This document shows, piece after piece, positions 15,315-64,000 of a DNA stretch of 64,000 nucleotides (positions are counted from its first letter, which is position 1; every line of letters starts with the position of its first letter). Source of the DNA: a virus; IMG/VR virus record IMGVR_UViG_3300006919_000052, positions 1 through 64,000 of that record; one strand, 5' to 3'. A model generated the notes under the pieces. The model was not told where the DNA came from. It did no database searches and saw nothing but the letters and a program-made list of their open reading frames with translations. The position numbers and the translations under genes are program-made.

Positions 15315-15949
15315 TGAGAAAGTTAATTTACATAACCTTAATAAGTTTCCTTTGGGCATGTAGCCCAGAGGAGCTTATTTCACCTTATCCTTGTTTAGGA
15401 GGTGATTGTGAAACCTTTTTTGAAATAGACCCACTTGTATCGCCTGGTGTATACCAGGATAATAATGGTTATTGGCACATTACGCATAATGATATTCAGT
15501 ATTTTACTATAAAAGGAATTACTAGCGAATTACACCCTGATTATATGGTAAATGGGGTTCCTCAGATTGAAACTATATTTGATTCTGATTATTGGGTGTG
15601 GATTGATGGTTTAACTTTCACAGTACCGTTATATAGCGTTTTAGGATTTTTTACCAGTGGAGATTACACAAACCCAATTCCTGTTGGTAATTTAACGTAT
15701 ACTATACAGGATATGGCTATAAATCACCCACCACTAAATATAGTAGGTTATTCAATTAACCCAGATGTTTGCTTGGATTGTCCTTATTTTGAAACATTAA
15801 TTGGTACTAGAAGTAAATATAATACTCATCCAAAGCAACAAATATTTTTTGATAATCAAATGGCAGGTGATACTACTAAAGTTTTTGTTAAAACTATATT
15901 TAATGGAGATATTGAAATAGAAAAAGAATTTAAAATTATATTCGAATGA
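15314..15949 (+). CDS. Lipoprotein
   Basis: A 211-residue lipoprotein. The N-terminus has a basic start (MRK), a hydrophobic stretch and the lipobox LWAC with Cys at residue 16, so signal peptidase II should process it. After the Cys comes SPEEL, an acidic run that could resemble the surface-export signals of Bacteroidota lipoproteins. The mature part is beta-rich with a C-x6-C and a C-x2-C pair. Phage lipoproteins are often superinfection-exclusion or receptor-masking proteins; that role is inferred. Confidence 0.75.
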   Translation: MRKLIYITLISFLWACSPEELISPYPCLGGDCETFFEIDPLVSPGVYQDNNGYWHITHNDIQYFTIKGITSELHPDYMVNGVPQIETIFDSDYWVWIDGLTFTVPLYSVLGFFTSGDYTNPIPVGNLTYTIQDMAINHPPLNIVGYSINPDVCLDCPYFETLIGTRSKYNTHPKQQIFFDNQMAGDTTKVFVKTIFNGDIEIEKEFKIIFE

Positions 15950-42961: not shown

Positions 42962-44392
42962 ATGTCAAAATCTAAAGGGCTGGGTGATACAGTAGCCAAA
43001 ATCACTAAATTTTTTAAAATAGATAAACTTGTTAAATCCATAGATGAAGATTGTGGGTGTGATAAAAGGCAAGAGTATTTAAATAAAATAGTACCTTATA
43101 AATCGTCTAAAAAAGACGAAAGTATTTTTGTACAAATAGCATCATATAGAGACCCCGAATTAAATAATACTTTAGAAGATTTATTTAAAAATGCTCAAAA
43201 CCCAGATAATCTTAAAGTTTGTATTGCTTGGCAACATGATGATAAAGATAAATGGGATCAATTAGATAAATATCAAAATGATAGTAGGGTTTTAATTTTA
43301 GATATTCCTTATAAAGAATCAAATGGTGTATGTTGGGCTAGAAATATGATTCAACAATATTATACTGATGAAACTTATACTTTACAATTAGATTCCCATC
43401 ATAGATTTATTAAAAACTGGGATACAGAATTAATTAAAATGTATAAAGGCCTTCAGAAAAAAGGACATAAAAAACCTTTAATAACTAGTTATTTACCCTC
43501 ATACTTCCCAGAAAAAGATCCTAAAGATAGAACACAAGAGTGTTGGCAACAAGATTTTAATAGATTTACTCCTGAAGGTTATATATTTACTTTTCCTTCC
43601 CTAATTTCAGGGTGGGAAAATTTAGATTCTCCTGTTCCAGGAAGATTTTATTCTGCCCATTTTGCTTTTGCAGGAGGAGCATTTTGTAATGAGGTACAAC
43701 ATGATCCCGAAATGTATTTTCATGGTGAAGAACCTAGTATAGCTGCTAGAGCTTTTACTTGGGGTTATGATATTTTTCACCCTCATAAAATTATAGCATG
43801 GCATTTTTATAGTAGAAACGGTTTTATAAAACATTGGGATGATCATAGTAATTGGAACGACATTGATGAACATTCCCATTTAAGATATCGAACTTTACAT
43901 GAAATGGACGGACATAAATGTACACCATGTGCTAAAAATGCTTTGGGAAAATATTATTTTGGGGAAGTAAGAACCCTAGAAGAATATGAGCGTTATGCTG
44001 GATTAAAATTTGGAGATAGAACAGTAACCCAATTTACTTTAGATAGAAATGTACCTCCTAATCCACCAGATAAATATGAAGGTATGTTAAGACCTCATTT
44101 TAAACATTGTATTGATGTACATCAAGACCATTTTAATGAAGATGATTATGATTTTTGGGTAGTTTCTTTTGAAATGGAAGATGGTACAGTAGTAGATAGA
44201 CAAGATGCAGATGCTAATGAATTAAAAAGATTATTAGAGCAAGCTAAAGGAGATGATGGTTGGGTTAGAATTTGGAGAGAATTTTTTGGACAAAAACCTG
44301 ATAAATGGGTTATATGGCCTCATTCCGAATCTAAGGGATATATTGAAAGATATGAAGTAAAATTAAATAAAGGAATAGAACCACCTCAATGA
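42962..44392 (+). CDS. GlcNAc-transferase family enzyme (GT60-like)
   Basis: A 476-residue GT-A protein of the family named for Skp1 GlcNAc-transferase. The start FVQIASYRDPELNNTLEDLF (about residues 56-75) is the family signature, followed by VCIAWQHDD, ILDIPYKESNGVCWARN, and the metal-site LQLDSHHRFIKNWD at about residues 140-153. Further down come FHGEEPSIAARAFTWGYD and HPHKIIAWHFY. Known members move GlcNAc onto protein hydroxyproline or threonine. The neighbour at 44389 is a second copy. The location directly after the mucin-like fibre gene makes fibre O-glycosylation a reasonable idea, though the acceptor is not proven. Confidence 0.83.
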   Translation: MSKSKGLGDTVAKITKFFKIDKLVKSIDEDCGCDKRQEYLNKIVPYKSSKKDESIFVQIASYRDPELNNTLEDLFKNAQNPDNLKVCIAWQHDDKDKWDQLDKYQNDSRVLILDIPYKESNGVCWARNMIQQYYTDETYTLQLDSHHRFIKNWDTELIKMYKGLQKKGHKKPLITSYLPSYFPEKDPKDRTQECWQQDFNRFTPEGYIFTFPSLISGWENLDSPVPGRFYSAHFAFAGGAFCNEVQHDPEMYFHGEEPSIAARAFTWGYDIFHPHKIIAWHFYSRNGFIKHWDDHSNWNDIDEHSHLRYRTLHEMDGHKCTPCAKNALGKYYFGEVRTLEEYERYAGLKFGDRTVTQFTLDRNVPPNPPDKYEGMLRPHFKHCIDVHQDHFNEDDYDFWVVSFEMEDGTVVDRQDADANELKRLLEQAKGDDGWVRIWREFFGQKPDKWVIWPHSESKGYIERYEVKLNKGIEPPQ

Positions 44393-45654
44393 GAAAAATA
44401 ATGCTACATCTCCCTGCTTATAGGGAACCCGAATTAATACCTACTATTAAAGATGCATTAGCCCAAGCTAAAAATCCTAAAAGAATACATTTTGGTATTT
44501 GTAGGCAATATAATCCTGAGGATGGTTTTGATAATTTAGATGAATTTAGGGATGATCCTAGATTTAAAATATCAGATATCCCTTATGAAGAAGCTAAAGG
44601 TTTACCCTATGCTAGAGCTATTATAAATGAAGAGTTATTAGATGATGAAGATTTTGTTTTACAGTTAGATGCTCATCATAGATTTGCAAAAGACTGGGAT
44701 GCAACTTTAATTAAATGGTATGATAAATTAAAAAAGAAGGGTAAAAATCCTTTAATATGTGGTTATTTACCATATTATAACCCATTTAATGACCCAGCAG
44801 AAAGAGTAAATGAGCCATGGTTTAGTGAAGCAGCATGTTTTTATCCACATGGTACTATATTTATTCGCCCTACAGGATATCATCATGTAGACTATAAAAC
44901 ATTAAAAGAACCAGTACCAGCTAGATTTATTTCAGGTCATTTTTGTTTTGGTCCAAATAAATGGGCTAAAACAGTAAAACATGATCCTGAAATATATTTT
45001 TCAGGAGAAGAATTAAATTTATCGGTTAGAAGTTTTACACATGGTTATGATTTATTCCACCCCCACCAAGTAGTTGTTTGGCATGCTACAATGAGAGAAG
45101 AAAGGGATAATATGTTAATATGGGATGATCAATCTAAGCGTGGGGATGATATGTGGTGGAGACAACAAGATATAGGGAGAGCTAGAATTAGACAACTTAT
45201 AGGAGTTGAAGATAATGGTTATGATTTAGGTGAATATGGTTTAGGTAATGTTCGTACTATAAGAGATTATGAAAAATATGCTGGTATTCATTTTAAGAAA
45301 AAATCATTCCAAAAATATACTAGAGACAATAAATTCCCTCCAAACCCTATAATTGAAGATGAACAAGAATGGGAGGATAGTTTTATGTTTTCATTTTATC
45401 ATTTAGTAAATGTTACTCCTGACCAACTACCAGCTAAAGATTATAATTTTATTTTAATAGCATATGATGATAAAGATGGAAATAGTATTGATAGTGAATA
45501 TATAGATGATTATAGATTAAAACAATTTTTAGAAGAAGGTAAACCTATCCATTATGAAAAAATGTTTATGACAGATGAAAATCCTGCAAGGGTAGTATAT
45601 TGGGGACACAGTGAAAAAAGAGGATGGGTTGAAAGAATAGAATCAAAAATCTAA
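44389..45654 (+). CDS. GlcNAc-transferase family enzyme, second copy
   Basis: A 421-residue relative of the preceding gene, overlapping it by four bases. It has the same landmarks: LHLPAYREPELIPTIKDAL at the N-terminus, ISDIPYEEAKGLPYARA, the LQLDAHHRFAKDWD metal site, FSGEELNLSVRSFTHGYD and HPHQVVVWH. It starts directly at the catalytic fold and lacks the 50-residue N-terminal extension of its partner. The pair probably arose by duplication and may act in sequence or on different acceptors. Confidence 0.83.
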   Translation: MRKIMLHLPAYREPELIPTIKDALAQAKNPKRIHFGICRQYNPEDGFDNLDEFRDDPRFKISDIPYEEAKGLPYARAIINEELLDDEDFVLQLDAHHRFAKDWDATLIKWYDKLKKKGKNPLICGYLPYYNPFNDPAERVNEPWFSEAACFYPHGTIFIRPTGYHHVDYKTLKEPVPARFISGHFCFGPNKWAKTVKHDPEIYFSGEELNLSVRSFTHGYDLFHPHQVVVWHATMREERDNMLIWDDQSKRGDDMWWRQQDIGRARIRQLIGVEDNGYDLGEYGLGNVRTIRDYEKYAGIHFKKKSFQKYTRDNKFPPNPIIEDEQEWEDSFMFSFYHLVNVTPDQLPAKDYNFILIAYDDKDGNSIDSEYIDDYRLKQFLEEGKPIHYEKMFMTDENPARVVYWGHSEKRGWVERIESKI

Positions 45655-46637
45655 TGATAGTATACCATTTAGAAACTCCATGTCATTGGCTTGGGTGGCA
45701 TGACGTATTTAATCAATTATCTAACCATATAAACAATAAGTATAATGCTACTTATTACCATAAACTTCCAATTATATCAAAAGATAATGATCATCTTTAT
45801 ATAGATAAATTTAATTTAAAACAAAAAGATTGTGAATTAATAATTTATGATGAAAAAAATGATATTTTAAAAGCTGTTACTTGGTGTGAGGTCCATAACT
45901 GTGGAGGTGAAGAAGAATGTTTATTAGATCTATTTAAAAAAAGAAACAATAAAAATGATATTCTTTTAATAACCCATCAAAGTACATGGTTTTATGAATT
46001 AGAAGAACAAAAAACATATTTAAAAGGGAATTGGAATTTTACAATTGAATCAACCCCCTTTTATACTTTTTCAAGTCCTATAGATCATGATGTTTTTTAT
46101 GAAAAAAGAAAATTAATAAATTATAAAGATTTAAATGATCAGATGTTTTGGTTATCTACTACTCGTAGAGAAGACCCATTTAAATTAAGAGAATTAGGTT
46201 TATGTAATAAAGGAGAAAAATCTTTAAAAATTGAAGAATATTTAGATTTATCAATTAATTACAAAGTAGGATTATCCATTTCAAGCTTAGCTGAAATATG
46301 TTATAGAGACATAGAATACATGGCTACAGGAATCCCAATGTTAAGATTAGAATATAAAGGAGAATATACACCTCAATTAATACCTAATTACCATTATATA
46401 GCAATTAACAGAGAAAAATATAACTTCCCAGGATCTAAAAATAACAAAAATTGGACTACTAATGACGATAGGATAGGAGGAGATATTTATGTACAAGCAT
46501 ATAAAGAAAGATTTTTAGAAGTAAAAGATGATTTTGAGTTTTTAAATCAAATATCTATAAATGCTAGAAAATATTATGAGGATTATTGTAAACCCTCTAC
46601 TAGAGTTAATTATTTATTATCACGTTTAAAATTATAG
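45654..46637 (+). CDS. GT-B-like glycosyltransferase
   Basis: A 327-residue protein without a clear signature in its first half. The second half looks like the C-terminal lobe of a GT-B enzyme: AEICYRDIEYMATGIPMLRL (about residues 214-233) has the acidic-Gly-Pro donor-binding pattern, and ISINARKYYEDYC is the usual closing helix. The region fits GT1/exostosin-like families. It overlaps the preceding gene by one base and precedes the next by two. Confidence 0.62.
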   Translation: MIVYHLETPCHWLGWHDVFNQLSNHINNKYNATYYHKLPIISKDNDHLYIDKFNLKQKDCELIIYDEKNDILKAVTWCEVHNCGGEEECLLDLFKKRNNKNDILLITHQSTWFYELEEQKTYLKGNWNFTIESTPFYTFSSPIDHDVFYEKRKLINYKDLNDQMFWLSTTRREDPFKLRELGLCNKGEKSLKIEEYLDLSINYKVGLSISSLAEICYRDIEYMATGIPMLRLEYKGEYTPQLIPNYHYIAINREKYNFPGSKNNKNWTTNDDRIGGDIYVQAYKERFLEVKDDFEFLNQISINARKYYEDYCKPSTRVNYLLSRLKL

Positions 46638-46639
46638 AT

Positions 46640-47515
46640 ATGCCTTTAATAAAAGATAAATTAGCTATTTGTTATACATGCTTTGGGGAAACTTTTAGAG
46701 AAAGTACTATAAACAAATTACAAAATTTATACATTGATGATGAAAACCTTTTTTATTTTATATTAACTGATGATAAAAAATATTTTAAAAATATTAAAAG
46801 GAAAAATTTAATAGTAAACGAAATTAAAGATTTTTATAAAGAATATCCTCATATAGAAGAATATGAACCCATAATAGAAGCAAAAGATAAAAATGAATAT
46901 GCTAAAATTTTTACAGAGAAAAACTATTTATTTCCTTTTTCTTTAATGAGATTTCATTTTTTACAAGCAATAAAATATAATATTAGTAATATATCTTTGA
47001 TTTGTACTGATACTAGAATTAATTTAGATTTTTTACCTTTAATGGAATTAGAACCTAATACCATAATTAATACTATATCAGAATGGGATGAAAGTACTAG
47101 TAAATTTGGTATGAATGTTATTAGTGACTTTCTAAAAAAAGAATATAATCACCAAATAGACCAAAAGGTAAGAGTATTAGATGCAGCAGCTAGGATTTTT
47201 TGTTTTAGAGATATTAAACAAGCAAAAGATTTTTTTGATGTTTGGGATAAAGTTATGCTTTATTTATATGAATCTAATCAAATTAATATATTTAAAGGAT
47301 CTTATGTAATAAATGATGAATATATTTTGGCTCCCATATATAGGATGTTTAAATTGAATAATAAACATTGTCATTCTTGTTCATCTCATCGTTTATTTGA
47401 AGTAAAACATAATGTTAAAAAAGAAAGATTTTGGAAAACATTAGGTTATGATGGGTTACAAGAACATACTAATTACGAAGAATTTTTAAAACTAAATAAT
47501 TTAAATAATGGCTAA
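46640..47515 (+). CDS. Unknown protein of glycan cluster 3
   Basis: A 291-residue soluble protein. ICYTCFGETFRESTINKL at the start and LICTDTRINLDFLPL near residue 116 are reminiscent of GT-A first-strand and DxD regions (DTR in place of DxD). A C-x2-C pair (CHSC) lies near residue 247. It could be a diverged glycosyltransferase. It is cotranscribed: two bases after the GT-B-like gene and eight bases of overlap with the carbamoyltransferase. Confidence 0.58.
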   Translation: MPLIKDKLAICYTCFGETFRESTINKLQNLYIDDENLFYFILTDDKKYFKNIKRKNLIVNEIKDFYKEYPHIEEYEPIIEAKDKNEYAKIFTEKNYLFPFSLMRFHFLQAIKYNISNISLICTDTRINLDFLPLMELEPNTIINTISEWDESTSKFGMNVISDFLKKEYNHQIDQKVRVLDAAARIFCFRDIKQAKDFFDVWDKVMLYLYESNQINIFKGSYVINDEYILAPIYRMFKLNNKHCHSCSSHRLFEVKHNVKKERFWKTLGYDGLQEHTNYEEFLKLNNLNNG

Positions 47516-49187
47516 TATAAGTTTTTACGGATCACATAATGGCTCTTTAATAATTGAAGATAAAGGAGAAATATTATGTGTAATTGAAATAGAAAGGTTT
47601 TTAAATGCTAAAAATATGGGTCTAACCCAATATTTTACTCCTAGATATATAATGATAACTTTAGAAGAAATTTTAAAGTGGGTTAAATCTGAATATGGAA
47701 TAACAAAATTTGAAAATTGTTATTTTGCAAGTACAGACTTTATAGGAGAAAATTGGAAAGGAGAACATATAACTTTTCAAACTAATACTCTTATAAATGC
47801 TAAAAACTTTATTCATTCTACACATCATGAATCACATGCTAATGGAGTATTTTATCAATCCCCTTATAAAAAAGCTTTAATATTTTCATTTGATGGTGGT
47901 GGAGATGATGGTAAATTTAATGTTTATTTAGGAGATAAAGAAAAAGGGGTTGAATTAATAGAAGTATTAAAAAACCCATTTGAACATCCTTCACGTCCTT
48001 TCTATGATTTAGGATTTGCCTATATGGTATTTGGTCATTATTTTAAAGATATATCTTTTAATGATCTATCCCATGGTAATTTAGTATACCCAGGTAAAAT
48101 AATGGGGTTAGTATCTTATGGTAATTATAGACAAGAATGGTTAGATGATTTTATCACTTTCTTTAAAAGTGACCCTGAGGGATCAAATGATGATTATGTT
48201 AATAAAATAAATAAATTAGGAGATAAAATAGGTGTTAAATTTAGTATAACTGAAAGATTAGAAGGACAAATAGCTTATGACATAGCTGCTACAGCTCAAA
48301 AGGCATTTGAAGAGTGTTTCCTAGAAGTTGCAGTTCCTTATTTTAAAAAATATCCTGATTTACCAGTGTGTATTACAGGAGGATGTGCTTTAAATATTAT
48401 TTTAAATACTAGAGTAAAAACTGAGTTTAATAAAGAAGTATTTGTTGGACCAAATCCAAATGATTGTGGTATTGGTTTAGGTTTAATGTTAAAACATTTA
48501 AAACCCCAAACACCAATTGATATAACATATAAAGGTTTACCTATATTAGATCAATCTACTATAGCAAGAACACTACCAGAATATCCTCATGTTAAAAAAT
48601 TAATGGAAGATGATGGTTATTATCACCCATTTGAACAATATCCACCTTCAATTTTAGTTGATGACTTAGAAAAAGGTAAAATATTAGGGATAGTAAGAGG
48701 TCAAGCAGAACATGGTCCTAGAGCTTTAGGAAATAGAAGTATTTTATGTAATCCCTCTATAGCTGAAATGAAGGATATTTTAAATGAAAAAGTAAAACAT
48801 AGAGAATGGTATAGACCATTTGCACCTGTTGTTAGATTAGAAGATGTTTCTAAATATTTTGATTGGGAGGATGAAGCAAGATGGATGAGTTTCTGCCCTA
48901 CAGTTAAAGAAGAATGGAGAGAAAAATTACCATCTATTACCCATATTGATAACACAGCTAGAGTCCAAACAGTAACAAAAGAACAAAATGAATGGTTATA
49001 TAATTTACTTACTGAATTTGATAAAAGAACAGGTGTAGGAGTTTTATTAAATACTTCATTTAATGTAAATGGTAAACCAATTTTATCCACTTATAGAGAT
49101 GCATTCCAAATATTTGATAACGAACAATTAGAATGTTTATTACTAGAAAATTATTATATTAGAAAAGAAGAATTTCCAAAGTTATGA
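47508..49187 (+). CDS. NodU/CmcH-type carbamoyltransferase
   Basis: A 559-residue O-carbamoyltransferase of the NodU/CmcH family, near full family length. The N-terminal ASKHA-like part shows FYGSHNGSLIIE, then HSTHHESHANGVFY (metal-binding His cluster) and IFSFDGGGDDG for ATP. The C-terminal YrdC-like part shows EHGPRALGNRSILCNP and LNTSFNVNGKPI. These enzymes make carbamoyl-AMP from carbamoyl phosphate and ATP and carbamoylate hydroxyl groups of sugars or antibiotics. In a glycosyltransferase block the likely target is a sugar hydroxyl. It overlaps both neighbours. Confidence 0.9.
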   Translation: MANISFYGSHNGSLIIEDKGEILCVIEIERFLNAKNMGLTQYFTPRYIMITLEEILKWVKSEYGITKFENCYFASTDFIGENWKGEHITFQTNTLINAKNFIHSTHHESHANGVFYQSPYKKALIFSFDGGGDDGKFNVYLGDKEKGVELIEVLKNPFEHPSRPFYDLGFAYMVFGHYFKDISFNDLSHGNLVYPGKIMGLVSYGNYRQEWLDDFITFFKSDPEGSNDDYVNKINKLGDKIGVKFSITERLEGQIAYDIAATAQKAFEECFLEVAVPYFKKYPDLPVCITGGCALNIILNTRVKTEFNKEVFVGPNPNDCGIGLGLMLKHLKPQTPIDITYKGLPILDQSTIARTLPEYPHVKKLMEDDGYYHPFEQYPPSILVDDLEKGKILGIVRGQAEHGPRALGNRSILCNPSIAEMKDILNEKVKHREWYRPFAPVVRLEDVSKYFDWEDEARWMSFCPTVKEEWREKLPSITHIDNTARVQTVTKEQNEWLYNLLTEFDKRTGVGVLLNTSFNVNGKPILSTYRDAFQIFDNEQLECLLLENYYIRKEEFPKL

Positions 49188-50881
49188 AAAATTATACAAT
49201 AGTTTCAGGTTTATGGGATCTAAACCGAGAAGGTAGAAAGTTTGAAGAACATTACATTCCCAGATTTAAAGAATTTTTAAAGATAGAAGCAAATATGATT
49301 TTATTTGTTCCTGCTTCATTAGAAAAACTTGTATGGGAACATAGAAACCCAGATAATACTTTTGTTAAAGTATTTGAATTAGAGGATATAAAACAATTAT
49401 ACGCCCCACACTGGGATAAAACACAAGAAATTAGAAAGAACCCAGATTGGTATAATTTAACAGGTAAAGGAGGATGGTTACCTAATAGTCCTCAAGCATC
49501 ATTAGAGTATTATAATCCTATAGTACAGTCTAAAATGTTTATGTTGCATGATGCTGTATGTTATAATAACTTTGAAACTGATTATTATTTTTGGGTTGAT
49601 GCAGGTTTAACCAATACAGTTCCTGCTACACATCTAGGTGAAAACAATTGTTTAGATTATTTAACCGAATGTTCAAATCCCTTTTTATTTTTATCATACC
49701 CTTATGATGCAACCGATGAAATACATGGGTTTAAATACCCTGAAATGAATGAAATTGCAGGGGAAAAAGTAAAATACGTTTGTAGAGGAGGTTTATTTGG
49801 TGGGCATAAAGAACAAATCAGAGAAGCTAACTCAACTTACTATGCATTATTAACTCAAACCTTAGAAAGGGGCTTAATGGGTACAGAAGAAAGTATTTTT
49901 TCTATTATGGCTCATAAAGAACCAAATTTATATAGAAGATTTGAATTAGATGGAAATGGTTTAGTAGTAAAATTTACAGAAGCTTTAGTAAATAAAGATG
50001 TTAAATTAGTTGATATTCCTAAAAATTCTAAACTTAATAAAAAAATATCTATATGGGATCTAAAAAACCTAAAAACAAATTTATATATTTTAACATTTAA
50101 TTTTCCAAAACAGTTGGAATTTACATTAAAAACAATGGAAAAAACTCCTGAATGGTTGGAGAAACCCCATTTAGTATTATTAGATAATTCTACAGACGAA
50201 AAAGCTAAAGCTAAAAATAAAAAAATAGCAAAAAAATATAAATTTGAATATATTGATAATGGAGGTAATATAGGAATATGTGGAGGAAGACAAGCAGCAG
50301 CAGACCATTTTGATAAATCAGATGCTGATTATTATTTCTTTTTTGAAGATGATATGACATCAAATCCACCTTCAATGGAGGGGCAATTTTGTAGAAATGG
50401 CTTAAGAAAATTTATTCCTGATTTATATAATATATTACATACAATTATGTTAAAGGAAGACTTTGATTTTCTAAAATTATCATTTACAGAAGTATATTGG
50501 GATAATAATATTCAAACTAGTTGGTATAATGTTCCACAAGACATAAGAACTAGAGATTGGCCTAATTATGATAAATTACCTACCACTGGTAATGATCCTA
50601 ATGCCCCTAGAACTATTTTTAATAAAATAAACACTTTAAGTGGAGTAGCTTATATAGATGGAGAAATTACTTATACAAATTGGCCTATGATTGTTTCTAA
50701 AAAAGGCAATAAAAAAATGTTTATAGATACAAAATGGGATCATCCTTATGAACAAACTTGGATGTCCTATATGTACCAAGAAACTAAAAAAGGCAATTTA
50801 CATCCTGCAGTTTTATTAGCTTCTCCTATATGGCATGAACGTATTCATTATTACAAACCTGAGGAACGAAGAGAAAATTAA
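49184..50881 (+). CDS. HtrL/YibB-like and GT2-like fusion protein
   Basis: A 565-residue two-part protein. The first part (about 1-270) matches the HtrL/YibB type: YTIVSGLWDLNREGR at the start, then VQSKMFMLHDAV, YYFWVDAGLTN and a late GTEES. The second part (about 300-500) is a GT2-type domain: LYILTFNFPKQLEFTLKTME, VLLDNSTDE, the turn NGGNIGICGGRQAAAD and the metal-site FFFEDDMTSN. HtrL/YibB proteins occur in LPS loci and have a GT-A-like fold; the fusion could add two sugars in sequence. It ends the third glycan cluster. Confidence 0.8.
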   Translation: MKNYTIVSGLWDLNREGRKFEEHYIPRFKEFLKIEANMILFVPASLEKLVWEHRNPDNTFVKVFELEDIKQLYAPHWDKTQEIRKNPDWYNLTGKGGWLPNSPQASLEYYNPIVQSKMFMLHDAVCYNNFETDYYFWVDAGLTNTVPATHLGENNCLDYLTECSNPFLFLSYPYDATDEIHGFKYPEMNEIAGEKVKYVCRGGLFGGHKEQIREANSTYYALLTQTLERGLMGTEESIFSIMAHKEPNLYRRFELDGNGLVVKFTEALVNKDVKLVDIPKNSKLNKKISIWDLKNLKTNLYILTFNFPKQLEFTLKTMEKTPEWLEKPHLVLLDNSTDEKAKAKNKKIAKKYKFEYIDNGGNIGICGGRQAAADHFDKSDADYYFFFEDDMTSNPPSMEGQFCRNGLRKFIPDLYNILHTIMLKEDFDFLKLSFTEVYWDNNIQTSWYNVPQDIRTRDWPNYDKLPTTGNDPNAPRTIFNKINTLSGVAYIDGEITYTNWPMIVSKKGNKKMFIDTKWDHPYEQTWMSYMYQETKKGNLHPAVLLASPIWHERIHYYKPEERREN

Positions 50882-56351: not shown

Positions 56352-57152
56352 ATGATAAAATTGTATAACTTAATAAAAGAACAATTAGAAAGACCAAAAG
56401 CTATTATCCTAGCTGGCGCTCCTGGAGCAGGTAAGGGATATGTTTTACGTGGTTTAGACATTGATGGTATTAAGACACTTAATGTAGATAATACTTATAT
56501 TAATTTATTAAAAAAAGCTAATGTATCATTAGATTTAAAAAATGCTGGTCCTAGAGATAGAAGTGAAGCAGCTAAAGCAATGGCATCAGCTAATAAAGAA
56601 TTTAAAGGAAAAGTAGCAGCTACAATAGAAGGTAAAGAACCTTTTATATTAGATGGAACAGCAGCATCAATTAAACAAACAGCTAATTTAAAAAAAGAAT
56701 TAGAAGAAGCTGGATATGAAGTATTTATGCTTTATGTTTATACTGATTTAGAACGTTCACTTAAACAAAATCAAGATAGATTTGAAAAATCAGGTGGTGA
56801 AGATAGAAGTTTAGCCCCAGCTATAGTAATGAGAACATGGGCCTCGGTTACTGATAATTATAAAGCATATGAAGCAATGTTTAAAAACAATTTTGTTTCC
56901 GTTGCTAATACATTAGAAGATAAAAAATTAAGTGATGTAGAGGATATAATAAAAAAATATTTAGATCCTTTTAAACCACAAGGAACAAAACCAAAAGATG
57001 CTAAGGCACAAGCAAGATCAGATAAATCAAAAGCTGCTTTAAATGCTAAATTAAAAGAACTAATCGCAGATGAAAATGTTCAAAATATAATAAATAATTC
57101 AGTTTCAAAAGAACAAGCACAAGAAGTATTAAGACAATTTTTATCTAAATGA
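56352..57152 (+). CDS. P-loop kinase, zeta-toxin-like
   Basis: A 266-residue P-loop protein. The Walker A motif GAPGAGKGY is at residues 22-30, followed by a helical lid region, FILDGTAAS (about residue 97) in the Walker B place, and Arg residues in the helical C-terminal half. The arrangement recalls zeta-toxin/UDP-GlcNAc-kinase or adenylate-kinase-like proteins, often present in T4-like phages. The first 16 residues form a Leu/Glu helix ahead of the fold. Substrate unknown. It overlaps the next gene by four bases. Confidence 0.75.
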   Translation: MIKLYNLIKEQLERPKAIILAGAPGAGKGYVLRGLDIDGIKTLNVDNTYINLLKKANVSLDLKNAGPRDRSEAAKAMASANKEFKGKVAATIEGKEPFILDGTAASIKQTANLKKELEEAGYEVFMLYVYTDLERSLKQNQDRFEKSGGEDRSLAPAIVMRTWASVTDNYKAYEAMFKNNFVSVANTLEDKKLSDVEDIIKKYLDPFKPQGTKPKDAKAQARSDKSKAALNAKLKELIADENVQNIINNSVSKEQAQEVLRQFLSK

Positions 57153-58864
57153 GTTTAACAAGTTACTTAACAGAAGGATTATTACCTGAAGAGGAAAAAA
57201 AACAAACTACAGCAGTATATGCTGGCGGTTTTAAACCTCCTACTGCTGGACATTTTGAAGTAGTTGAAGAGGCATTAAAACAAAATCCTGAAATAGATGA
57301 ATTTATTATCTTTATAGGTACTAAAGAAAGAAATGGAATATCTCAGGATGAGTCTTTATTAATTTGGGAAGTATACAATAATTATCTCCCATTTAAAGTT
57401 AAATTAGAACCAACATCTATACCACCTGTTAAAGCAGTATATGATTTTGCTAAAAATCACCCAACAAGAGAAGTATTATGGATTATAGGTGCTAGAGAAG
57501 GTAATGATGAAGATTTTAAAGATATTTCTGCTAGAACAACTTCTATTTCTAAATATCCAAATTTAGAACTTCGTACTATTATAACACAAGGTGGAGTTTC
57601 AGGTACTGCTGCTAGAAATGCTTCTAAAGTATCATTAGAAAAATTTATACCTTTTCTACCAACAATGCTTAATCCAGAAGAACAAGAAGAAGTATACAAT
57701 ATAGTAGCAGATAAAATATCTGAAAACGATCCTGAAGATGGTAAAGCTGCTCCCTATGGTTCAGGATATAAAAAATTAAATGAAAATGCATCTTATTCCC
57801 AACATATAGATGTAATGGAAAAAATAGCCCAATTAACTAATCATATGATTGATAAGGGTATGAATATTGAACCCTTACCTTCAATGGAGTTTGTAGATGG
57901 AGATTCAGAAAATGCCAAAGACTTTTTTGGTAAAACAGCGTATTATGATCCAAATAGACAACATATTGTTTTATACACGGAAGGTAGACATCCTAAAGAT
58001 ATAGTACGTTCGTATGCACATGAAATGATTCATCACATACAGAACTTAGAAGATAGATTAGGAGATATACCTGGTACCGATACAACAAGTTCAGATCATT
58101 TAACTAATCTAGAAAAAGAAGCTAATTTAAAGGGTACAATGACATTTAGAAATTGGACTGATAGTATATTAAATGAAGCAGTTGTAGGTGATAAAATTGA
58201 ATGTGATAAATGTGGGTGGAGTTGGAATATAGTAGATGGTGGTAATGATTTATTTATGTGTCACAAATGTGGACATAATAATGAACCCATAAGTGAAGGT
58301 AAGAAAAAAGACCCATTTGGTTTATTAGCATATGCTCAAGAATTAGGCCGTTTAAGAGAAGATGAAAGCGAATATAAAGTTTATTTAGATATGGACGGAG
58401 TATTAGCTGATTTTGACCAACGTTTTAGAGATTTATCTGGAATGGAACCAAGTGAATTTGAAAATAAATACGGTAGAAAAGCATTTTGGGATTTAATAGA
58501 TGAAGAACATAAAATTAAATTTTGGGTTGGTATTAAACCAATGGATGGTGCATCAGCATTAGTAGATGCTGTTAAAGATTATGATTATGAATTATTAACA
58601 TCTCCATCAGCAAAAAAACAATCTTATCTAGGAAAAATACTTTGGGTAAAAAATCATACAGGTGACGTGTTTCCTTCAAAACCTCGTATTAACTTTAAGA
58701 AAGCAAAAGAAAAACACCTTATTAAACCACAATTAGCAAAAACAGATATCCTAATAGATGATAGAGAAGATACTATTGGGAGATGGAATGCAGCTGGTGG
58801 TACAGGTATAGTATATAAAAGTATAGGTCAAACATTAAGTGATCTTAAAAAATTAGGTTTATGA
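57149..58864 (+). CDS. Four-domain fusion: nucleotidylyltransferase, zincin, zinc ribbon, HAD
   Basis: A 571-residue protein with four recognisable parts. (1) About 20-190: a cytidylyltransferase/NMNAT-like domain with YAGGFKPPTAGH (the HxGH-type nucleotide-binding site, here TAGH) and SGTAAR at the end. (2) About 205-340: a zincin-like metallopeptidase with HEMIHH at about residue 291 and a downstream Glu in LEKEAN. (3) About 351-375: a zinc ribbon (CDKCGW, CHKCGH). (4) About 410-571: a HAD/5'-nucleotidase with DMDGVLADFD, LLTSPSAKK and IDDREDT. NAD salvage or nucleotide metabolism fits parts 1 and 4. The embedded protease is unusual and may cut the chain or other proteins. Confidence 0.8.
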   Translation: MSLTSYLTEGLLPEEEKKQTTAVYAGGFKPPTAGHFEVVEEALKQNPEIDEFIIFIGTKERNGISQDESLLIWEVYNNYLPFKVKLEPTSIPPVKAVYDFAKNHPTREVLWIIGAREGNDEDFKDISARTTSISKYPNLELRTIITQGGVSGTAARNASKVSLEKFIPFLPTMLNPEEQEEVYNIVADKISENDPEDGKAAPYGSGYKKLNENASYSQHIDVMEKIAQLTNHMIDKGMNIEPLPSMEFVDGDSENAKDFFGKTAYYDPNRQHIVLYTEGRHPKDIVRSYAHEMIHHIQNLEDRLGDIPGTDTTSSDHLTNLEKEANLKGTMTFRNWTDSILNEAVVGDKIECDKCGWSWNIVDGGNDLFMCHKCGHNNEPISEGKKKDPFGLLAYAQELGRLREDESEYKVYLDMDGVLADFDQRFRDLSGMEPSEFENKYGRKAFWDLIDEEHKIKFWVGIKPMDGASALVDAVKDYDYELLTSPSAKKQSYLGKILWVKNHTGDVFPSKPRINFKKAKEKHLIKPQLAKTDILIDDREDTIGRWNAAGGTGIVYKSIGQTLSDLKKLGL

Positions 58865-59433
58865 AAGTAAATGGATTAAAAAGAGAATTTCAAGAAAAAG
58901 ATGTAGAAAGAATTAGAAATCTTGTTAAAGGTAAACATGGAGATAAAACAGGTACTAGTGTAGGATATACTAAACCACAAGAACTCTATGAAGAAGGAGA
59001 TATATGGGAAAGTGATGGTCGTACTTGGACTATTAAAGATGGTATTAAACAAAATATTACAAAATTAGATAAGGCTAAAAAAGCACACGTTATGCCTTTA
59101 CTTTGCCCTAAATGTAATACAGTAATGAAAAATCGCAATGATAAATCTTTTTACAATATACACAAAATGTGTTTTAATTGTGTTGTTGATTTTGAACATA
59201 AATTAAAAAAAGAAGGTAAATACGAAGAATACGAACGTAAAATTAAAAATGATGAATTAGATAATCGTATTAAAGAATTTAAACTTTGGGTAAAAGAAAA
59301 ATTAAATGAAAGTAATGATGGTTTTGTTTCTGAAGCAGGTGATGTAGAAAGATGGGTAGGAAAATTAAATCCTGAAAAAGTTGATGATCATTTAAAAGAA
59401 GTTGTAGAATATTTGGAATCACTTAAAACTTAA
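58861..59433 (+). CDS. 190-residue zinc-finger-like protein
   Basis: A 190-residue basic-to-acidic protein. A C-x2-C pair (LCPKCN, about residue 82) and a second one (MCFNC, about residue 101) suggest one zinc site. The N-terminal part includes a DIWESDGRTWTIKDG segment that I associate with conserved phage hypotheticals. The C-terminal third is helical and acidic. The start overlaps the fusion gene's stop (ATGA). Confidence 0.68.
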   Translation: MKVNGLKREFQEKDVERIRNLVKGKHGDKTGTSVGYTKPQELYEEGDIWESDGRTWTIKDGIKQNITKLDKAKKAHVMPLLCPKCNTVMKNRNDKSFYNIHKMCFNCVVDFEHKLKKEGKYEEYERKIKNDELDNRIKEFKLWVKEKLNESNDGFVSEAGDVERWVGKLNPEKVDDHLKEVVEYLESLKT

Positions 59434-59436
59434 TTT

Positions 59437-59454
59437 TATATATTTATAATAAAC
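59437..59454 (+). promoter_or_regulatory. Element B, candidate late promoter
   Basis: Core TATTTATAA at 59441-59449 within ATATATTTATAATAAA, ending 15 bases before the ATG at 59465. Confidence 0.58.
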
Positions 59455-59464
59455 ATATTTTACT

Positions 59465-60196
59465 ATGAAAGATAATTTTGATGTACACTCTTGGAATATA
59501 AAAAGATATTTAAATGAGTTAGACATAAATAAACAAGGAGGAGAAGATGATATAGACCAAGAAGATGTAGCGGGGTCATTAAATGTAACCCATGGGGGTG
59601 ATGATCCTACTATAGGAGCAGAAGAAGAAGCTGGTGTTATAGGTGATAGAGTAGAAGAAAATGAATCATATTTAAATAGTCTTGCATTAAAACTATCATC
59701 AAAACACCCAGATTTAGATTTTTATGTTAGAGATGAACCTGGTTTTGATAGAATTGATGTAGTAGGATCTGAACGAGATAAATTAATATTTGGCGATGAA
59801 TTCCATGGTAAAGAATTTGGTGAGTATGAAGTATTCCATACAGATGATGATGATAGAGGAGAAATAGTTCGTATTGTTAAATCTGATTCTATAATGAGAA
59901 GTAAGAATGAATCCTTACAAGCGGTTGAAGAAACTGTTAAATTTATAATGGAAGATCTTGAAGGTTATTCTAACTATTTCCCAGATGGTAAAACAAAAGG
60001 TTTAACCTCAGATGAAATGTCTACTATCTTAATGCAAATTGTTAAAGACATAGAAGAAAACGGAAAACAATTACAAGAAAAACTTTGCAAAAAAGGAGAA
60101 GCATATAGAAAAAAAAGAATGGCAGCTGGGGAAAAATCATCTGCTTATTTATCAGGTCGTGCTGTAAAAGTATGTAAAGGAGATATGAAAGGATAA
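59465..60196 (+). CDS. 243-residue acidic protein, unknown
   Basis: A strongly acidic protein, rich in Asp/Glu in the first 130 residues, with a helical, more basic C-terminal 60 residues (KLCKKGEAYRKKRMAAGEKS). The first residues (FDVHSWNIKRYLNE) form a short amphipathic helix like those of neighbouring proteins. It may be a head or internal protein; no family is recognised. The next gene starts at its stop (ATAATG). Confidence 0.62.
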   Translation: MKDNFDVHSWNIKRYLNELDINKQGGEDDIDQEDVAGSLNVTHGGDDPTIGAEEEAGVIGDRVEENESYLNSLALKLSSKHPDLDFYVRDEPGFDRIDVVGSERDKLIFGDEFHGKEFGEYEVFHTDDDDRGEIVRIVKSDSIMRSKNESLQAVEETVKFIMEDLEGYSNYFPDGKTKGLTSDEMSTILMQIVKDIEENGKQLQEKLCKKGEAYRKKRMAAGEKSSAYLSGRAVKVCKGDMKG

Positions 60197-60471
60197 TGAC
60201 TAAAGAACAATTATCAGAAAGAATACAAGAATCACTCCGTGATTGGTTTAAAAAAGAAGATTGGGTTAGAATCAATACTTCAGGTAATATTTCTGGTAAG
60301 TGTGGTACAATGAAAAAAGGTAAAGCTACAACTAGATGTTTACCTAAGAAAAAAGCACAATCCTTAACTAAAGCAGAACGTAAAGCTACGGTTGCTAAAA
60401 AAGTTAGAGGTGATAAAAAAGGAAAACAATTTGTGAAAAACACAAAGAAAGCTGAATATAAAAAAAAATAA
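60196..60471 (+). CDS. DUF5872 family protein
   Basis: A 91-residue, very basic protein of the DUF5872 type: WVRINTSGNISGKCGTMKKG with ATTRCLPKKKAQSL, then KAERKATVAKKVRG. The two Cys are in the family's positions. DUF5872 occurs in phages and large eukaryotic viruses, with unknown function; the charge suggests nucleic-acid binding. The N-terminal 20 residues (KEQLSERIQESLRDW) are an added amphipathic helix. Confidence 0.75.
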   Translation: MTKEQLSERIQESLRDWFKKEDWVRINTSGNISGKCGTMKKGKATTRCLPKKKAQSLTKAERKATVAKKVRGDKKGKQFVKNTKKAEYKKK

Positions 60472-60475
60472 ACAA

Positions 60476-61162
60476 ATGAAAAAATTATTTACACTATTAT
60501 TTGCAGTTACTTTATTAATAGGGTGCAAACAAAATCAACCAGTAAAAATTCATGAAGGTGCATATGCATTCTGTGGAGCATCAGGAGCAATTCCTACTGG
60601 AAATAAAATTATTATACAAGGAGTAGAGTATGATGAAGGTTGTGCTATTTGTCCTGTATTAGAAGGACAATCAATTGGTAGTTTAGTAATGGAAGGTGTA
60701 AGCCCAAGCTGGGGTGAAGTAACTGGTACTAAAGGAAAATTTAGTACAAAGAAGTATTTTGAATATCCAGGAAATGATGGCAGTACTGTATGGGATGGAA
60801 AATATGTATGGTCTTATTTCTGGTACTTTTCACCAACTGACACAATTCCTCAATTTAATCCTGATACTAAAAGTTGGGAATGGATGAATCCAAATAACCG
60901 AAAGTTTATAATTGATTTAAGTAATCCTGCAACAAGTGAAAGTAATATGTTTGCTATGCCAGGCGTTATTTTTGATACTACATCAACAGGTATTGTATTA
61001 GCTAAAGTTTATGGACCACTTAATGAGGCAGCTGTACCATTACGTAAAGCAGTTCCTGTAAAAAATGGACAAACTTCAATAACTGCTGCTAAAGAAGGTT
61101 TTCCATACCCTGTAGGAACCCCAGTTTCATTAGTAGAATTAAGTAAAGACTTACAAAATTAA
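60476..61162 (+). CDS. Lipoprotein 1 of three
   Basis: A 228-residue lipoprotein with a Lys-rich start, a hydrophobic stretch and the lipobox LIGC (Cys at residue 17). The mature part has Cys pairs (FCGAS, GCAIC) and aromatic-rich segments (KYVWSYFWYF). It begins the first of three consecutive lipoprotein genes of similar layout. The function is unknown; host envelope modification or superinfection exclusion is plausible. Confidence 0.75.
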   Translation: MKKLFTLLFAVTLLIGCKQNQPVKIHEGAYAFCGASGAIPTGNKIIIQGVEYDEGCAICPVLEGQSIGSLVMEGVSPSWGEVTGTKGKFSTKKYFEYPGNDGSTVWDGKYVWSYFWYFSPTDTIPQFNPDTKSWEWMNPNNRKFIIDLSNPATSESNMFAMPGVIFDTTSTGIVLAKVYGPLNEAAVPLRKAVPVKNGQTSITAAKEGFPYPVGTPVSLVELSKDLQN

Positions 61163-61174
61163 AAAACAATAAAA

Positions 61175-61675
61175 ATGAAAAAATTATTATTATTAATATT
61201 ATCAATGTTCCTATTTGTAGGATGTAAAAATGGAGTTAAAAAAGTAGAAAAAGTAGAAACATCACCTGCTAAATTTACTTTAACAGTAATTAATCATACA
61301 GATCAAGATATGAAATGGGAACAAAGTTGGGCAATGACAGGACCAGATTCTGGAATTGTAGCAGCAGGTGATACTGTTGAATTATCTTCTAATGAAGTTG
61401 ATTCAGACCATATTAATGTTTACCCAATGCCCCCTAAAAGTATAGATCAACCAAACCCAGGAAATGGAACTTTTAATATGCAGTATGGTTGGGATGGACA
61501 TATAGCCCGTGTATATTGCGATAATGTATGTAACAAAGGTTACCCAACAGCTGATGTACATTATGATGGTACAAATTGGATATACGCAACTGAATGGTTA
61601 AAGGATCCATCAGTACAAACTAACACAACAAACACAGTAACTATAACTACAAAACCTTGGTCTAAAGAAAACTAA
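61175..61675 (+). CDS. Lipoprotein 2 of three
   Basis: A 166-residue lipoprotein: signal peptide MKKLLLLILSMFLF with lipobox FVGC (Cys at 17). The mature part is a beta-rich domain with a C-x3-C pair (CDNVC). It lies 12 bases after lipoprotein 1. Unknown function. Confidence 0.75.
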   Translation: MKKLLLLILSMFLFVGCKNGVKKVEKVETSPAKFTLTVINHTDQDMKWEQSWAMTGPDSGIVAAGDTVELSSNEVDSDHINVYPMPPKSIDQPNPGNGTFNMQYGWDGHIARVYCDNVCNKGYPTADVHYDGTNWIYATEWLKDPSVQTNTTNTVTITTKPWSKEN

Positions 61676-61678
61676 AAT

Positions 61679-62527
61679 ATGAAAAAAATATTATTATTAT
61701 TGGGGTTATTATTAACAGGATGTTCAACAACATGGCATGTAAGTACAACAGGTCACGATCCAATATATGATACAGTTTTAGAAGTACCAGCTAATGTACA
61801 AATAGATACATTATCATCTTCACAATTAAGATGGAAATTAAGAACTGACTTTAGATTCAGATATGATTTTGCTCAATATGCTTTATCCCAACCTAGATCA
61901 TTTGATTGGAATAATAGAGTTTTAGGTAATAGATATAATGTTTACAACCCATATTATGGATTTGGATATAGTAATTACTGGAGTAGAGACATGATGTGGA
62001 ATGATTGGGTATGGGGTTATAATTCATATAATATGTGGTCACCATTTAGATACGATAGATGGGGTTATAATCATTATGGATGGAATAGCTGGGGTTGGAA
62101 TGGATACTATGGTAATAGCTGGGGTTGGAGACAACAAATGAATAATTATGCTTGGCAACATAGAAATAGACCTAATACAGCCTACATTAATGGTAGAAGA
62201 GGTTCTAATAATATACAAAGTAGAATTGTTGTTAATAATACTAACCGAACAAGAGTTAATGTAAGAGAAGATAAAGTAGATTTATTAGCTAATAAAATAC
62301 GTAAGAGAGTAAATAATAAGAATATTAGAGTTTATAATAACCCAAATAACCCTAATATAAACAATAAATCAAAACCACGAGTTTACGTTAGGCCTAATAA
62401 TAATAGTAAACCACGAGTTTACGTTAGACCTAATAATAATAGTAATAACTCTAGACAAATAGTTAATTCACCTCCAAGATCTAGCAATAATAGTGCGTCA
62501 AGGAGTAATATTAGAAGAAAAAATTAA
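61679..62527 (+). CDS. Lipoprotein 3 of three, Asn/Tyr/Trp-rich
   Basis: A 282-residue lipoprotein: signal peptide with lipobox LTGC (Cys at 15). The mature part has an aromatic run (about residues 80-150, many Asn/Tyr/Trp/Gly, WGYNHYGWNSWGWNGYYG-like), followed by Asn/Arg-rich repeats, including a duplicated 12-residue unit (SKPRVYVRPNNN). Its composition is unusual for a lipoprotein and suggests a sticky or flexible surface domain. Unknown. Confidence 0.72.
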   Translation: MKKILLLLGLLLTGCSTTWHVSTTGHDPIYDTVLEVPANVQIDTLSSSQLRWKLRTDFRFRYDFAQYALSQPRSFDWNNRVLGNRYNVYNPYYGFGYSNYWSRDMMWNDWVWGYNSYNMWSPFRYDRWGYNHYGWNSWGWNGYYGNSWGWRQQMNNYAWQHRNRPNTAYINGRRGSNNIQSRIVVNNTNRTRVNVREDKVDLLANKIRKRVNNKNIRVYNNPNNPNINNKSKPRVYVRPNNNSKPRVYVRPNNNSNNSRQIVNSPPRSSNNSASRSNIRRKN

Positions 62528-62552: not shown

Positions 62553-63467
62553 ATGAGCGATTTCAATTACCAAAAATACCTAAAAAATAATCCTTTACTT
62601 AAAAAAGAAGTAAAAGATACACTACTTACCGAAGCTAAAGACAAAGAAGTCGAAGAAGTAATGGGGGTAGACAGAAAAGGAAACAAAAAACCTGATACCG
62701 ATGGAAGCGATGCTTCTAAATTTAAAAGAGCAGCTAAAGATGTTAAAGAAGTAAGAATTGATCGTGATGTAGCTGAACGTATTGAAGGTTTATTAGATAG
62801 ATCTATGAAAGCTAAATTTATAGATGCATTTATGGACATATACTCAGATTTATTAGAAGAAGATAATTTCTTTCCTGAAGATATAATCAATCACTTAAAT
62901 AATGAAATGCATGCTGAATTAGCTGGTTATCAAAGACAAGGTGATAGATTAAATAGTATAGGAGAGGATGCTAGAACGGATGCTGAAGAAGAAGGATATA
63001 AAGATGGCATGAAAGACGAAAAAGAAGACATGAAAGAAGATGCTAGAACAGATGCTGAAGAAGAAGGATATGAAGATGGATTTAAAGATGCTAAATCAGA
63101 TATGAAAGATGCTATTAGTAAAATGAAAGTATCAGAACTTAAAGCAAAAATTAAAGAAGATATTATTTCATTACTTGAAGAAGATAGTTTAGAAGAAGAT
63201 GCTAGAACAGATGCTGAAGAAGAAGGCTACAAGGACGGAATGAAAGATGAAAAAGAAGATCTGGAAGGAGAAGATATTGAAATTGATATTGAAGAACCAT
63301 TAGATGCAGAAACTGCTCAAGGTGGTCTTACTGATGATGAAAGAGAAGTTCAAGATGCTCTAAAACTTGCTTATGATAATGCTATTGCAATGGGAGATCA
63401 AAAACTAGCTGACCAAATTGGTAATTCAATTACATTCTTTACTAGGACTCACGTTGTAGAAAGATAA
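62553..63467 (+). CDS. Acidic repeat protein with N-terminal tag
   Basis: A 304-residue, very acidic protein. The start FNYQKYLKNNPLLKKEVKDT is an amphipathic helical tag. Residues about 139-235 contain three copies of an EDARTDAEEEGYKDGMKDEKED-type unit. Head core or scaffold proteins of T4-like phages are similarly acidic and often carry short cleavable N-termini, so an internal head protein is a fair guess. No enzymatic motif is visible. Confidence 0.68.
   Translation: MSDFNYQKYLKNNPLLKKEVKDTLLTEAKDKEVEEVMGVDRKGNKKPDTDGSDASKFKRAAKDVKEVRIDRDVAERIEGLLDRSMKAKFIDAFMDIYSDLLEEDNFFPEDIINHLNNEMHAELAGYQRQGDRLNSIGEDARTDAEEEGYKDGMKDEKEDMKEDARTDAEEEGYEDGFKDAKSDMKDAISKMKVSELKAKIKEDIISLLEEDSLEEDARTDAEEEGYKDGMKDEKEDLEGEDIEIDIEEPLDAETAQGGLTDDEREVQDALKLAYDNAIAMGDQKLADQIGNSITFFTRTHVVER
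62967..63262 (+). repeat. Three-copy acidic coding repeat
   Basis: Three in-frame copies of a roughly 66-base unit starting at 62967, 63039 and 63198 (each with GATGCTAGAAC and GATGCTGAAGAAGAAGG). The first two are nearly adjacent; a 90-base non-repeat segment separates the second and third. They differ by a few base changes, mostly at third positions. Confidence 0.85.
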
Positions 63468-63468
63468 T

Positions 63469-64000
63469 ATGTTAAGCGAACGCAAACTCACTGAAAATGA
63501 ACTGGAGCAAAGGAAAATCGCTCTCAAGGGTTTGTTAAAAAACAAACGTGCTTTAGTTCAAAAGTATGGTAAGGATGCCGAAACAGTTATGTATGGAATA
63601 GCTACCAAACAGGCAAAGAAAAAAATTGAAAATATGAATTTGGACAAATTAAAAGAAATGATCCAGGATGCCCTTATTGTTAAGGAAGCATCCCCTTTTG
63701 TACTAGCAGCAGACGCAGCAAAAGATGCGGGTAAAAAAGAATTTGAGTTTCCTAAAGGTAGTGGTAAAATGCATCCTGTAACTATCAAAAAAGATATTGA
63801 AGAAGATTATTTAGATGTAGATGATACAAAAAATAATGATACTGGTTTTTCTGGCCGAGCAGATTATGGTGAAGAAGATAAAGCACTAGGTCAAGAAGAT
63901 GAGCTAGAAATGAAAGGTTTAGAAGAAGATAAGGAGCTAGAGGATTGGAATAGTGAATTTGGTGATGATGCAGAATCTCAAGATAGAATAGATAATGAAG
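63469..64000 (+). CDS. Conserved phage structural-region protein, partial
   Basis: An open frame from the ATG at 63469 to the window's end (177 codons visible, no stop). The N-terminal pattern (ERKLTENELEQRKIALKGL, then KKNKRAL-like VQKYGKDAETVMYG and ATKQAKKK) is one I recognise from conserved T4-like marine phage proteins near head genes. The visible C-terminal part is acidic. The remainder lies outside the window. Confidence 0.68.
   Translation, partial: MLSERKLTENELEQRKIALKGLLKNKRALVQKYGKDAETVMYGIATKQAKKKIENMNLDKLKEMIQDALIVKEASPFVLAADAAKDAGKKEFEFPKGSGKMHPVTIKKDIEEDYLDVDDTKNNDTGFSGRADYGEEDKALGQEDELEMKGLEEDKELEDWNSEFGDDAESQDRIDNE

What the first reader, a model, noticed from the sequence alone, without database searches (positions are those of the whole stretch)
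60476..62527. Three consecutive lipoprotein genes in a phage
All three have clean lipoboxes (LIGC, FVGC, LTGC) and start only 4-13 bases apart. A fourth, unrelated lipoprotein lies at 15314. Phage lipoproteins such as T5 Llp block receptors. A triple set suggests a surface-exclusion complex or an envelope-altering device. The third has an Asn/Tyr/Trp-rich domain that is unusual.
Basis: partly seen in the sequence, partly recalled or inferred. Interest (0 to 1): 0.6.

Follow-up and report, generated by a model that had tools for sequence, protein, structure and literature searches.

The report
Phage lipoprotein trio linked to glycosidase
A phage of marine, probably Bacteroidota, bacteria carries three back-to-back genes for membrane-anchored lipoproteins; in other phages two of these families are fused to, and the third lies next to, a sugar-chain-cutting enzyme (GH7-like), so they probably act on sugar polymers of the infected cell's envelope, although this has not been tested.

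Summary
In detail: three co-directional ORFs (Lp1 60476-61162, Lp2 61175-61675, Lp3 61679-62527), 12 and 3 bases apart, each with a clean lipobox; they are the only ORFs among 78 that pass a strict lipobox rule. The surface-exclusion reading gained no support but is not excluded. The three are not a fixed complex: in relatives the same slot holds Lp2-Lp3, GH7-Lp3 or Lp3 alone. Lp1 and Lp2 occur elsewhere as C-terminal domains of a phage lipoprotein related to glycoside hydrolase family 7 (profile match to PDB 8pof, E 7.6e-9; ExDxxE motif in 46/46 sequences), and Lp3 lies beside that enzyme in further contigs. In one lineage GH7, Lp1 and Lp2 share a slot between ribonucleotide reductase and amidase/holin genes. 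Lp1 belongs to a phage-borne superfamily (125 close and 84 distant IMG/VR contigs; none in 50,697 isolate phages), is under purifying selection, and has no relative of solved structure. Lipid anchors, transmembrane anchors and plain secretion all occur, so its common place is beyond the inner membrane. Best reading: accessory modules of a phage-encoded, envelope-located, glycan-directed set. Substrate, partner in this phage and purpose are untested.

The parts
60476..61162 (+). Lp1: lipoprotein, 228 aa (lipobox LIGC); orphan beta-rich domain; family also found fused to the C-terminus of a phage GH7-like enzyme
61175..61675 (+). Lp2: lipoprotein, 166 aa (lipobox FVGC); family also found fused to the C-terminus of a GH7-like enzyme in one contig (L121)
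61679..62527 (+). Lp3: lipoprotein, 282 aa (lipobox LTGC); Trp/Tyr/Asn-rich middle and Asn/Arg-rich basic tail (pI 12); family lies beside the GH7-like gene in L094 and L173
60196..60471 (+). 91-aa phage gene (phrog_14910/23735) forming the left border of the variable lipoprotein slot
62553..63467 (+). 304-aa phage gene (weak phrog_3025 match) forming the right border of the slot

Best explanation
[quoted passage not shown] They belong to a modular set of phage envelope proteins whose catalytic member, in related phages, is a GH7-like glycosidase lipoprotein. Lp1 and Lp2 are accessory (most likely glycan-binding or substrate-presenting) modules of that enzyme, found either fused to its C-terminus or as separate lipoproteins. 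Lp3 is a companion whose aromatic middle and basic tail suit binding to glycan or wall polymers. In the phage studied they would act on a beta-linked glycan of the host envelope, alone, with a host enzyme or with an enzyme gene outside the fragment. The likeliest purpose is to loosen or remodel envelope or surface glycan late in infection, helping release of progeny. Shown: the genes, lipoboxes, fusions, shared slots, conserved catalytic motif and purifying selection. Inferred: location, glycan role, timing and purpose.
For: (1) Lp1 domain fused to the GH7-like domain in two sequence types (L092/L093, 544 aa; L103, 511 aa) and Lp2-type domain fused in L121 (hhalign E 5e-14, 33% identity over 129 columns). 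(2) GH7 assignment: profile A4 matches PDB 8pof 'Putative glycosyl hydrolase family7', E 7.6e-9, aligned through the CNEIDF.ETNG region; motif present in 46/46 distinct sequences. (3) 65 GH7 loci found; 24 hold an Lp1, Lp2 or Lp3 gene within 5 kb or fused, in both gene orders and in five flank lineages. (4) The same slot is filled by different combinations: 91-aa gene [Lp1-Lp2-Lp3 | Lp2-Lp3 | GH7-Lp3 | Lp3] 304-aa gene in the window's lineage; ribonucleotide reductase [Lp2 | GH7 | GH7+Lp1 fused | GH7, Lp1 | GH7+Lp1 fused, Lp2] amidase/holin in another. (5) Lp1 in about 19 flank lineages, dN/dS median 0.19. (6) Anchoring by lipid, transmembrane helix or none, all beyond the inner membrane.
Against: No GH7 gene was found in the window, and most Lp1 loci (about 73) have none within about 6 kb. 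The GH7+Lp2 fusion rests on one contig. Lp1 has no detectable relation to any carbohydrate-binding module by sequence or by fold. The five lineages partly share genes, so the linkage events are not fully independent. Placement beside lysis or peptidoglycan-hydrolase genes holds in only two of the lineages, and the window's own slot adjoins genes of unknown function, not lysis genes.
Confidence: 0.42

Rival explanations
1. Superinfection exclusion: the lipoproteins bind outer-membrane receptors from the periplasm, as T5 Llp does with FhuA, and stop related phages from adsorbing or injecting.
For: Phage lipoproteins with this role are known and T5 Llp is periplasmic (PMC9586334); Lp1 is an accessory gene spread over many unrelated phages; a variable slot suits such genes. 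The Cor superinfection exclusion profile matches the Lp1 signal peptide weakly (E 0.037, residues 1-22 only).
Against: The Cor match covers only the signal peptide. Mature proteins are 17-32 kDa, larger than the small Llp/Cor proteins. Lp1 is strongly conserved across unrelated phages (dN/dS 0.19), unlike what is expected of receptor-specific blockers. Fusion with a GH7-like enzyme is unexplained.
Confidence: 0.22
2. Lysis accessories: the set helps break the outer layers at the end of infection, in place of or beside spanins.
For: In one lineage the slot lies between ribonucleotide reductase and amidase and holin genes; in L114 Lp1-GH7 follows a membrane-anchored glucosaminidase.
Against: In the window and in most Lp1 lineages no lysis genes were found nearby; none of the proteins looks like a spanin, and PHROGs spanin hits lie at the signal peptide end.
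Confidence: 0.15
3. Auxiliary metabolism: the infected cell uses phage-encoded glycan-binding and glycan-cutting lipoproteins to take up environmental polysaccharide, like a miniature Sus system.
For: GH7-like enzyme motif intact; a sulfatase gene (PF00884) lies just upstream of GH7 in L161-L167; Sus systems of Bacteroidota are built mainly from lipoproteins (PMC5080379).
Against: No surface-export signal on any of the families, no transporter gene seen beside them, and the sulfatase shows no signal peptide at its N-terminus.
Confidence: 0.13
4. Virion components with N-termini that only resemble lipoprotein signals.
For: The slot in the window lies among genes that may encode head-internal proteins.
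Against: Clean lipoboxes conserved in homologues; Lp1 relatives with ordinary Sec signals or transmembrane anchors.
Confidence: 0.03

Closest known systems
Glycoside hydrolase family 7 (PDB 8pof and relatives)
   Same: The partner enzyme family in related phages matches GH7 by profile (E 7.6e-9) with the ExDxxE catalytic motif.
   Different: The phage form is a lipoprotein of about 290 aa and is not recognised by Pfam. The window itself holds only the accessory families, not the enzyme.
T5 Llp / T1-type Cor superinfection-exclusion lipoproteins
   Same: Phage-encoded lipoproteins, probably facing the periplasm.
   Different: No sequence relation beyond the signal peptide; much larger; fused to or beside a glycosidase in other phages; sequence-conserved across unrelated phages.
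Sus-like polysaccharide-utilisation lipoproteins of Bacteroidota
   Same: Sets of lipoproteins with a glycosidase.
   Different: No SusC/SusD match among the proteins scanned and no lipoprotein export signal; carried by phages.
Uncharacterized phage protein A0A6J5QU59 (BFVD)
   Same: Only significant fold match of Lp1 (E 4.1e-8, 23% identity); about the length of the secreted Cys-rich Lp1 branch.
   Different: Function unknown.

Membership tests
Bacterial lipoprotein (signal peptidase II substrate) | Positively charged n-region, hydrophobic h-region, lipobox ending in Cys | tested here: met
   All three; conserved in homologues
Surface-exposed Bacteroidota lipoprotein | Acid-rich export signal at +2 to +6 after the Cys (QKDDE, SDDDD, SDDFE) | tested here: not met
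   Lp1 CKQNQP, Lp2 CKNGVK, Lp3 CSTTWH; no LES-like sequence in any of 63+12+10 lipobox homologues (motif from PMC5080379)
T5 Llp / Cor superinfection exclusion proteins | Sequence relation to Llp or Cor | tested here: not met
   Only the signal peptide of Lp1 matches phrog_1119, E 0.037
T5 Llp / Cor superinfection exclusion proteins | Blocks infection by related phages through an outer-membrane receptor | not testable with these tools
   Needs expression and plaque assays
Spanins | Small o-spanin lipoprotein overlapping or following an i-spanin near the endolysin | tested here: not met
   Sizes 166-282 aa, no i-spanin-like gene or endolysin recognised beside them in the window; spanin profile hits only at the signal peptide end
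Glycoside hydrolase family 7 (partner enzyme, not in window) | Profile relation to a GH7 structure | tested here: met
   8pof, E 7.6e-9 over 189 residues; no Pfam GH7 hit
Glycoside hydrolase family 7 (partner enzyme, not in window) | ExDxxE catalytic motif | tested here: met
   46 of 46 distinct sequences
Glycoside hydrolase family 7 (partner enzyme, not in window) | Hydrolase activity on a beta-1,4-glycan | not testable with these tools
   Needs purified protein
Carbohydrate-binding module | Relation of Lp1 or Lp2 to a known CBM by sequence or fold | tested here: not met
   No Pfam, NCBIfam or PDB match; fold search of Lp1 model without significant PDB hit; Lp2 fold not tested

The most novel reading that the evidence does not exclude
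A previously undescribed, widely spread phage envelope system: a GH7-like glycosidase lipoprotein with interchangeable accessory lipoproteins (an Lp1 superfamily of new fold, Lp2, Lp3), exchanged as a set between unrelated large phages and used to remodel the glycan envelope of infected Bacteroidota and other bacteria.
Probability: 0.28. Interest if true: 0.72.

Novelty: new variant of a known kind. Interest (0 to 1): 0.52.

Why it matters
Lp1 is a widespread secreted protein of uncultured large phages (125 close and 84 distant IMG/VR contigs) yet is absent from 50,697 isolate phage records and from Pfam, NCBIfam and PHROGs. Linking it and its neighbours to a GH7-like enzyme gives a first testable idea of what such phages do to the envelope of marine Bacteroidota, a group central to polysaccharide turnover. 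It also turns a guess of superinfection exclusion into a set of specific alternatives that expression experiments can separate.

Tried and rejected
Annotation by Pfam, PHROGs and NCBIfam for all three: no real match; the hits were signal peptides or below cut-off, including PF20287 SH3DP for Lp2. Isolate phages by tblastn: none for Lp1, Lp2, Lp3, GH7 or Lp1 branch 2. Bacterial genomes: no Lp1 by pattern scan of 84,980 species (two exact short patterns only, low sensitivity); in 296 Bacteroidota genomes Lp1 gave one weak match to an unrelated lipoprotein, GH7 none (without a positive control), Lp3 only the genome used as centre, Lp2 only matches starting in the signal peptide region. First AlphaFold model of Lp1 with close homologues failed (pLDDT 41.6); adding the distant branch gave pLDDT 71.6, but no significant PDB fold match. 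Kelch hits in the PDB profile search come from a 20-residue repeat match and were rejected. A T4-type late promoter (TATAAATA) occurs no more often than chance (27 vs 29 expected). L010's 125-aa gene after Lp1 looked Lp2-like but hhalign did not support it. L094 scored for Lp2 as well as GH7; this was judged to come from the similar signal peptide and was not counted as a fusion.

Full report
WHAT IS THERE. The three ORFs are present as described: Lp1 60476-61162, Lp2 61175-61675, Lp3 61679-62527, on the + strand, with gaps of 12 and 3 bases and 4 bases to the 91-aa gene upstream. Their N-termini are textbook lipoprotein signals. A strict lipobox rule passes only these three of 78 main ORFs in the window; three passing ORFs falling next to each other by chance has p about 0.001. 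The window is 64,000 of a 64,338-base linear virus record, so the genome is probably incomplete. Phage nature is supported by baseplate-wedge-like, primase, exonuclease and virion-type genes. Only 4 of 63 genes have an SD-like motif upstream and GC is 30%; this fits a Bacteroidota phage. The two cellular-database hits for Lp3 are phage-like contigs, one binned into a Schleiferiaceae MAG. The host is inferred, not shown.

THE THREE FAMILIES. Lp1 has 125 relatives in IMG/VR by a search with six short patterns; the best 80 are 57-87% identical and lie in contigs up to 373 kb; their flanking genes fall into 19 groups that share fewer than two genes. None is found in 50,697 isolate phages. A second, Cys-rich, mostly Sec-secreted branch has 84 relatives, recognised by the Lp1 profile at E about 1e-6 to 1e-8 and sharing residues such as C33, C59, P60, W112, S113, S156, N157. 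Anchoring differs: lipobox in most of branch 1, an N-terminal transmembrane segment in L026, L042, L044, L073 and in L205, L217 and others, cleavable Sec signal in L124 and most of branch 2 (read by eye). The shared location is therefore beyond the inner membrane. Median pairwise dN/dS of Lp1 is 0.19. AlphaFold with both branches gives a beta-rich model of fair confidence (pLDDT 71.6, pTM 0.73) with no significant PDB match and one significant viral match, an uncharacterised phage protein. Lp2 has 12 contigs and Lp3 six plus two. Lp3 combines a Trp/Tyr/Asn/Gly-rich middle with an Asn/Arg-rich basic tail.

THE LINK TO A GLYCOSIDASE. In L092/L093 Lp1 is the C-terminal part of a 544-aa lipoprotein. 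Its N-terminal domain recurs as a separate lipoprotein, and a profile of 12 members matches PDB 8pof, 'Putative glycosyl hydrolase family7', at E 7.6e-9, aligned through the catalytic ExDxxE region; the motif C.EID[FL].ETNG is present in all 46 distinct sequences. Pfam does not recognise it, so 'GH7-like' is the right name until tested. A profile-guided scan found 65 loci. Lp1 is fused (two sequence types), immediately upstream (L003-L005, L114), or downstream within 2 kb (L007, L010, L012, L042, L106, L124, L146); an Lp2-type domain is fused in L121 (hhalign E 5e-14; one contig only); Lp3 is adjacent in L094 and L173 and about 0.85 kb away in L161 and others. Together 24 of the 65 loci hold at least one of the three families. 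Grouping by shared flanking genes gives five lineages; they are partly related, so the events are not fully independent, but gene order and fusion state differ between them.

SWAPPABLE SLOTS. In the window's lineage the slot between the 91-aa gene and the 304-aa gene holds Lp1-Lp2-Lp3 (window), Lp2-Lp3 (L082, L089, L096), GH7-Lp3 (L094) or Lp3 alone (L100). In another lineage the slot after ribonucleotide reductase and before amidase/holin genes holds Lp2 (L083-L087, L091), GH7 (L104, L105), GH7+Lp1 fused (L103), GH7 then Lp1 (L106), or GH7+Lp1 fused then Lp2 (L092, L093). That the families replace and accompany one another in two unrelated places is the main evidence that they form one functional set. 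It also shows that the triple in the window is one combination among several, not a fixed complex.

WHERE THEY ACT. Surface lipoproteins of Bacteroidota carry an acid-rich signal after the Cys (PMC5080379). None of the Lp1, Lp2, Lp3 or GH7 homologues with a lipobox has it. The default place is the periplasmic face of the outer membrane. This does not by itself speak against superinfection exclusion, because T5 Llp acts from the periplasm (PMC9586334).

INTERPRETATION. The best-supported reading is that Lp1 and Lp2 are accessory modules of a glycan-directed phage envelope set and Lp3 its companion; binding to glycan is an inference from the fusions and from Lp3's composition, not a measured property. 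The purpose is open: helping release, remodelling the surface, excluding other phages and feeding on polysaccharide all remain possible. I favour envelope-glycan remodelling late in infection because in one lineage the slot adjoins the lysis genes and in L114 a membrane-anchored glucosaminidase precedes Lp1-GH7. In the window itself no GH7 gene was found; it may lie outside the fragment, or the accessory proteins may work without it, as they seem to in the roughly 73 Lp1 loci with no GH7 nearby. Confidence in the glycan-set reading is 0.42.

NOVELTY. Phage lipoproteins and phage-borne glycosidases are both known kinds. What is new here, as far as the searches reach, is the combination: a GH7-like lipoprotein family in phages with exchangeable accessory lipoproteins, one of them a large superfamily without annotation or known fold. 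Literature searches found no description of it, within an open-access library only. That GH7 is otherwise mainly eukaryotic is my own background knowledge and was not tested.

Noticed in passing
38780-41014 (-): A 744-aa open frame lies antisense to the 1262-aa ORF 38229-42017; either composition bias or a real overlapping gene.
   Followed up: no
56352-60471 and 62553-64000: Several consecutive ORFs start with short amphipathic stretches (MIKLYNLIKEQL, MSLTSYLTEGLLPEEE, MSDFNYQKYLKNN, MLSERKLTENEL) reminiscent of T4 capsid-targeting sequences; one (571 aa) has nucleotidyltransferase-like and 5'-nucleotidase domains. They might be injected head proteins.
   Followed up: no
42962-50881: Cluster of glycosyltransferases (phrog_24687 twice, phrog_842 weakly) and a NolO-like carbamoyltransferase (phrog_1601).
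   Followed up: partly
15314-15949: The fourth lipoprotein has C-S-P-E-E-L after the lipobox, closer to a Bacteroidota surface-export signal than Lp1-Lp3; it may be the surface-exposed one.
   Followed up: no
L161-L167: A sulfatase gene (PF00884/PF16347) lies directly upstream of the phage GH7-like gene.
   Followed up: partly
L007, L010: Genes that look like Fe-S assembly proteins (IscU-like, ferredoxin-like, IscA-like, by eye) sit between the GH7-like gene and Lp1.
   Followed up: no
L146, L179-L258: Large phage family of Cys-rich secreted proteins (CNGEYALCAASTCKPTGKTITGNNGVPYPEVECRCPIL...), a distant branch of Lp1; ribonucleotide reductase is nearby in 19 of 78 loci.
   Followed up: partly
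L085:8416-10462: Phage lysis region with a thioredoxin-like protein bearing a signal peptide between a spanin-like gene and the endolysin (first two by eye).
   Followed up: no
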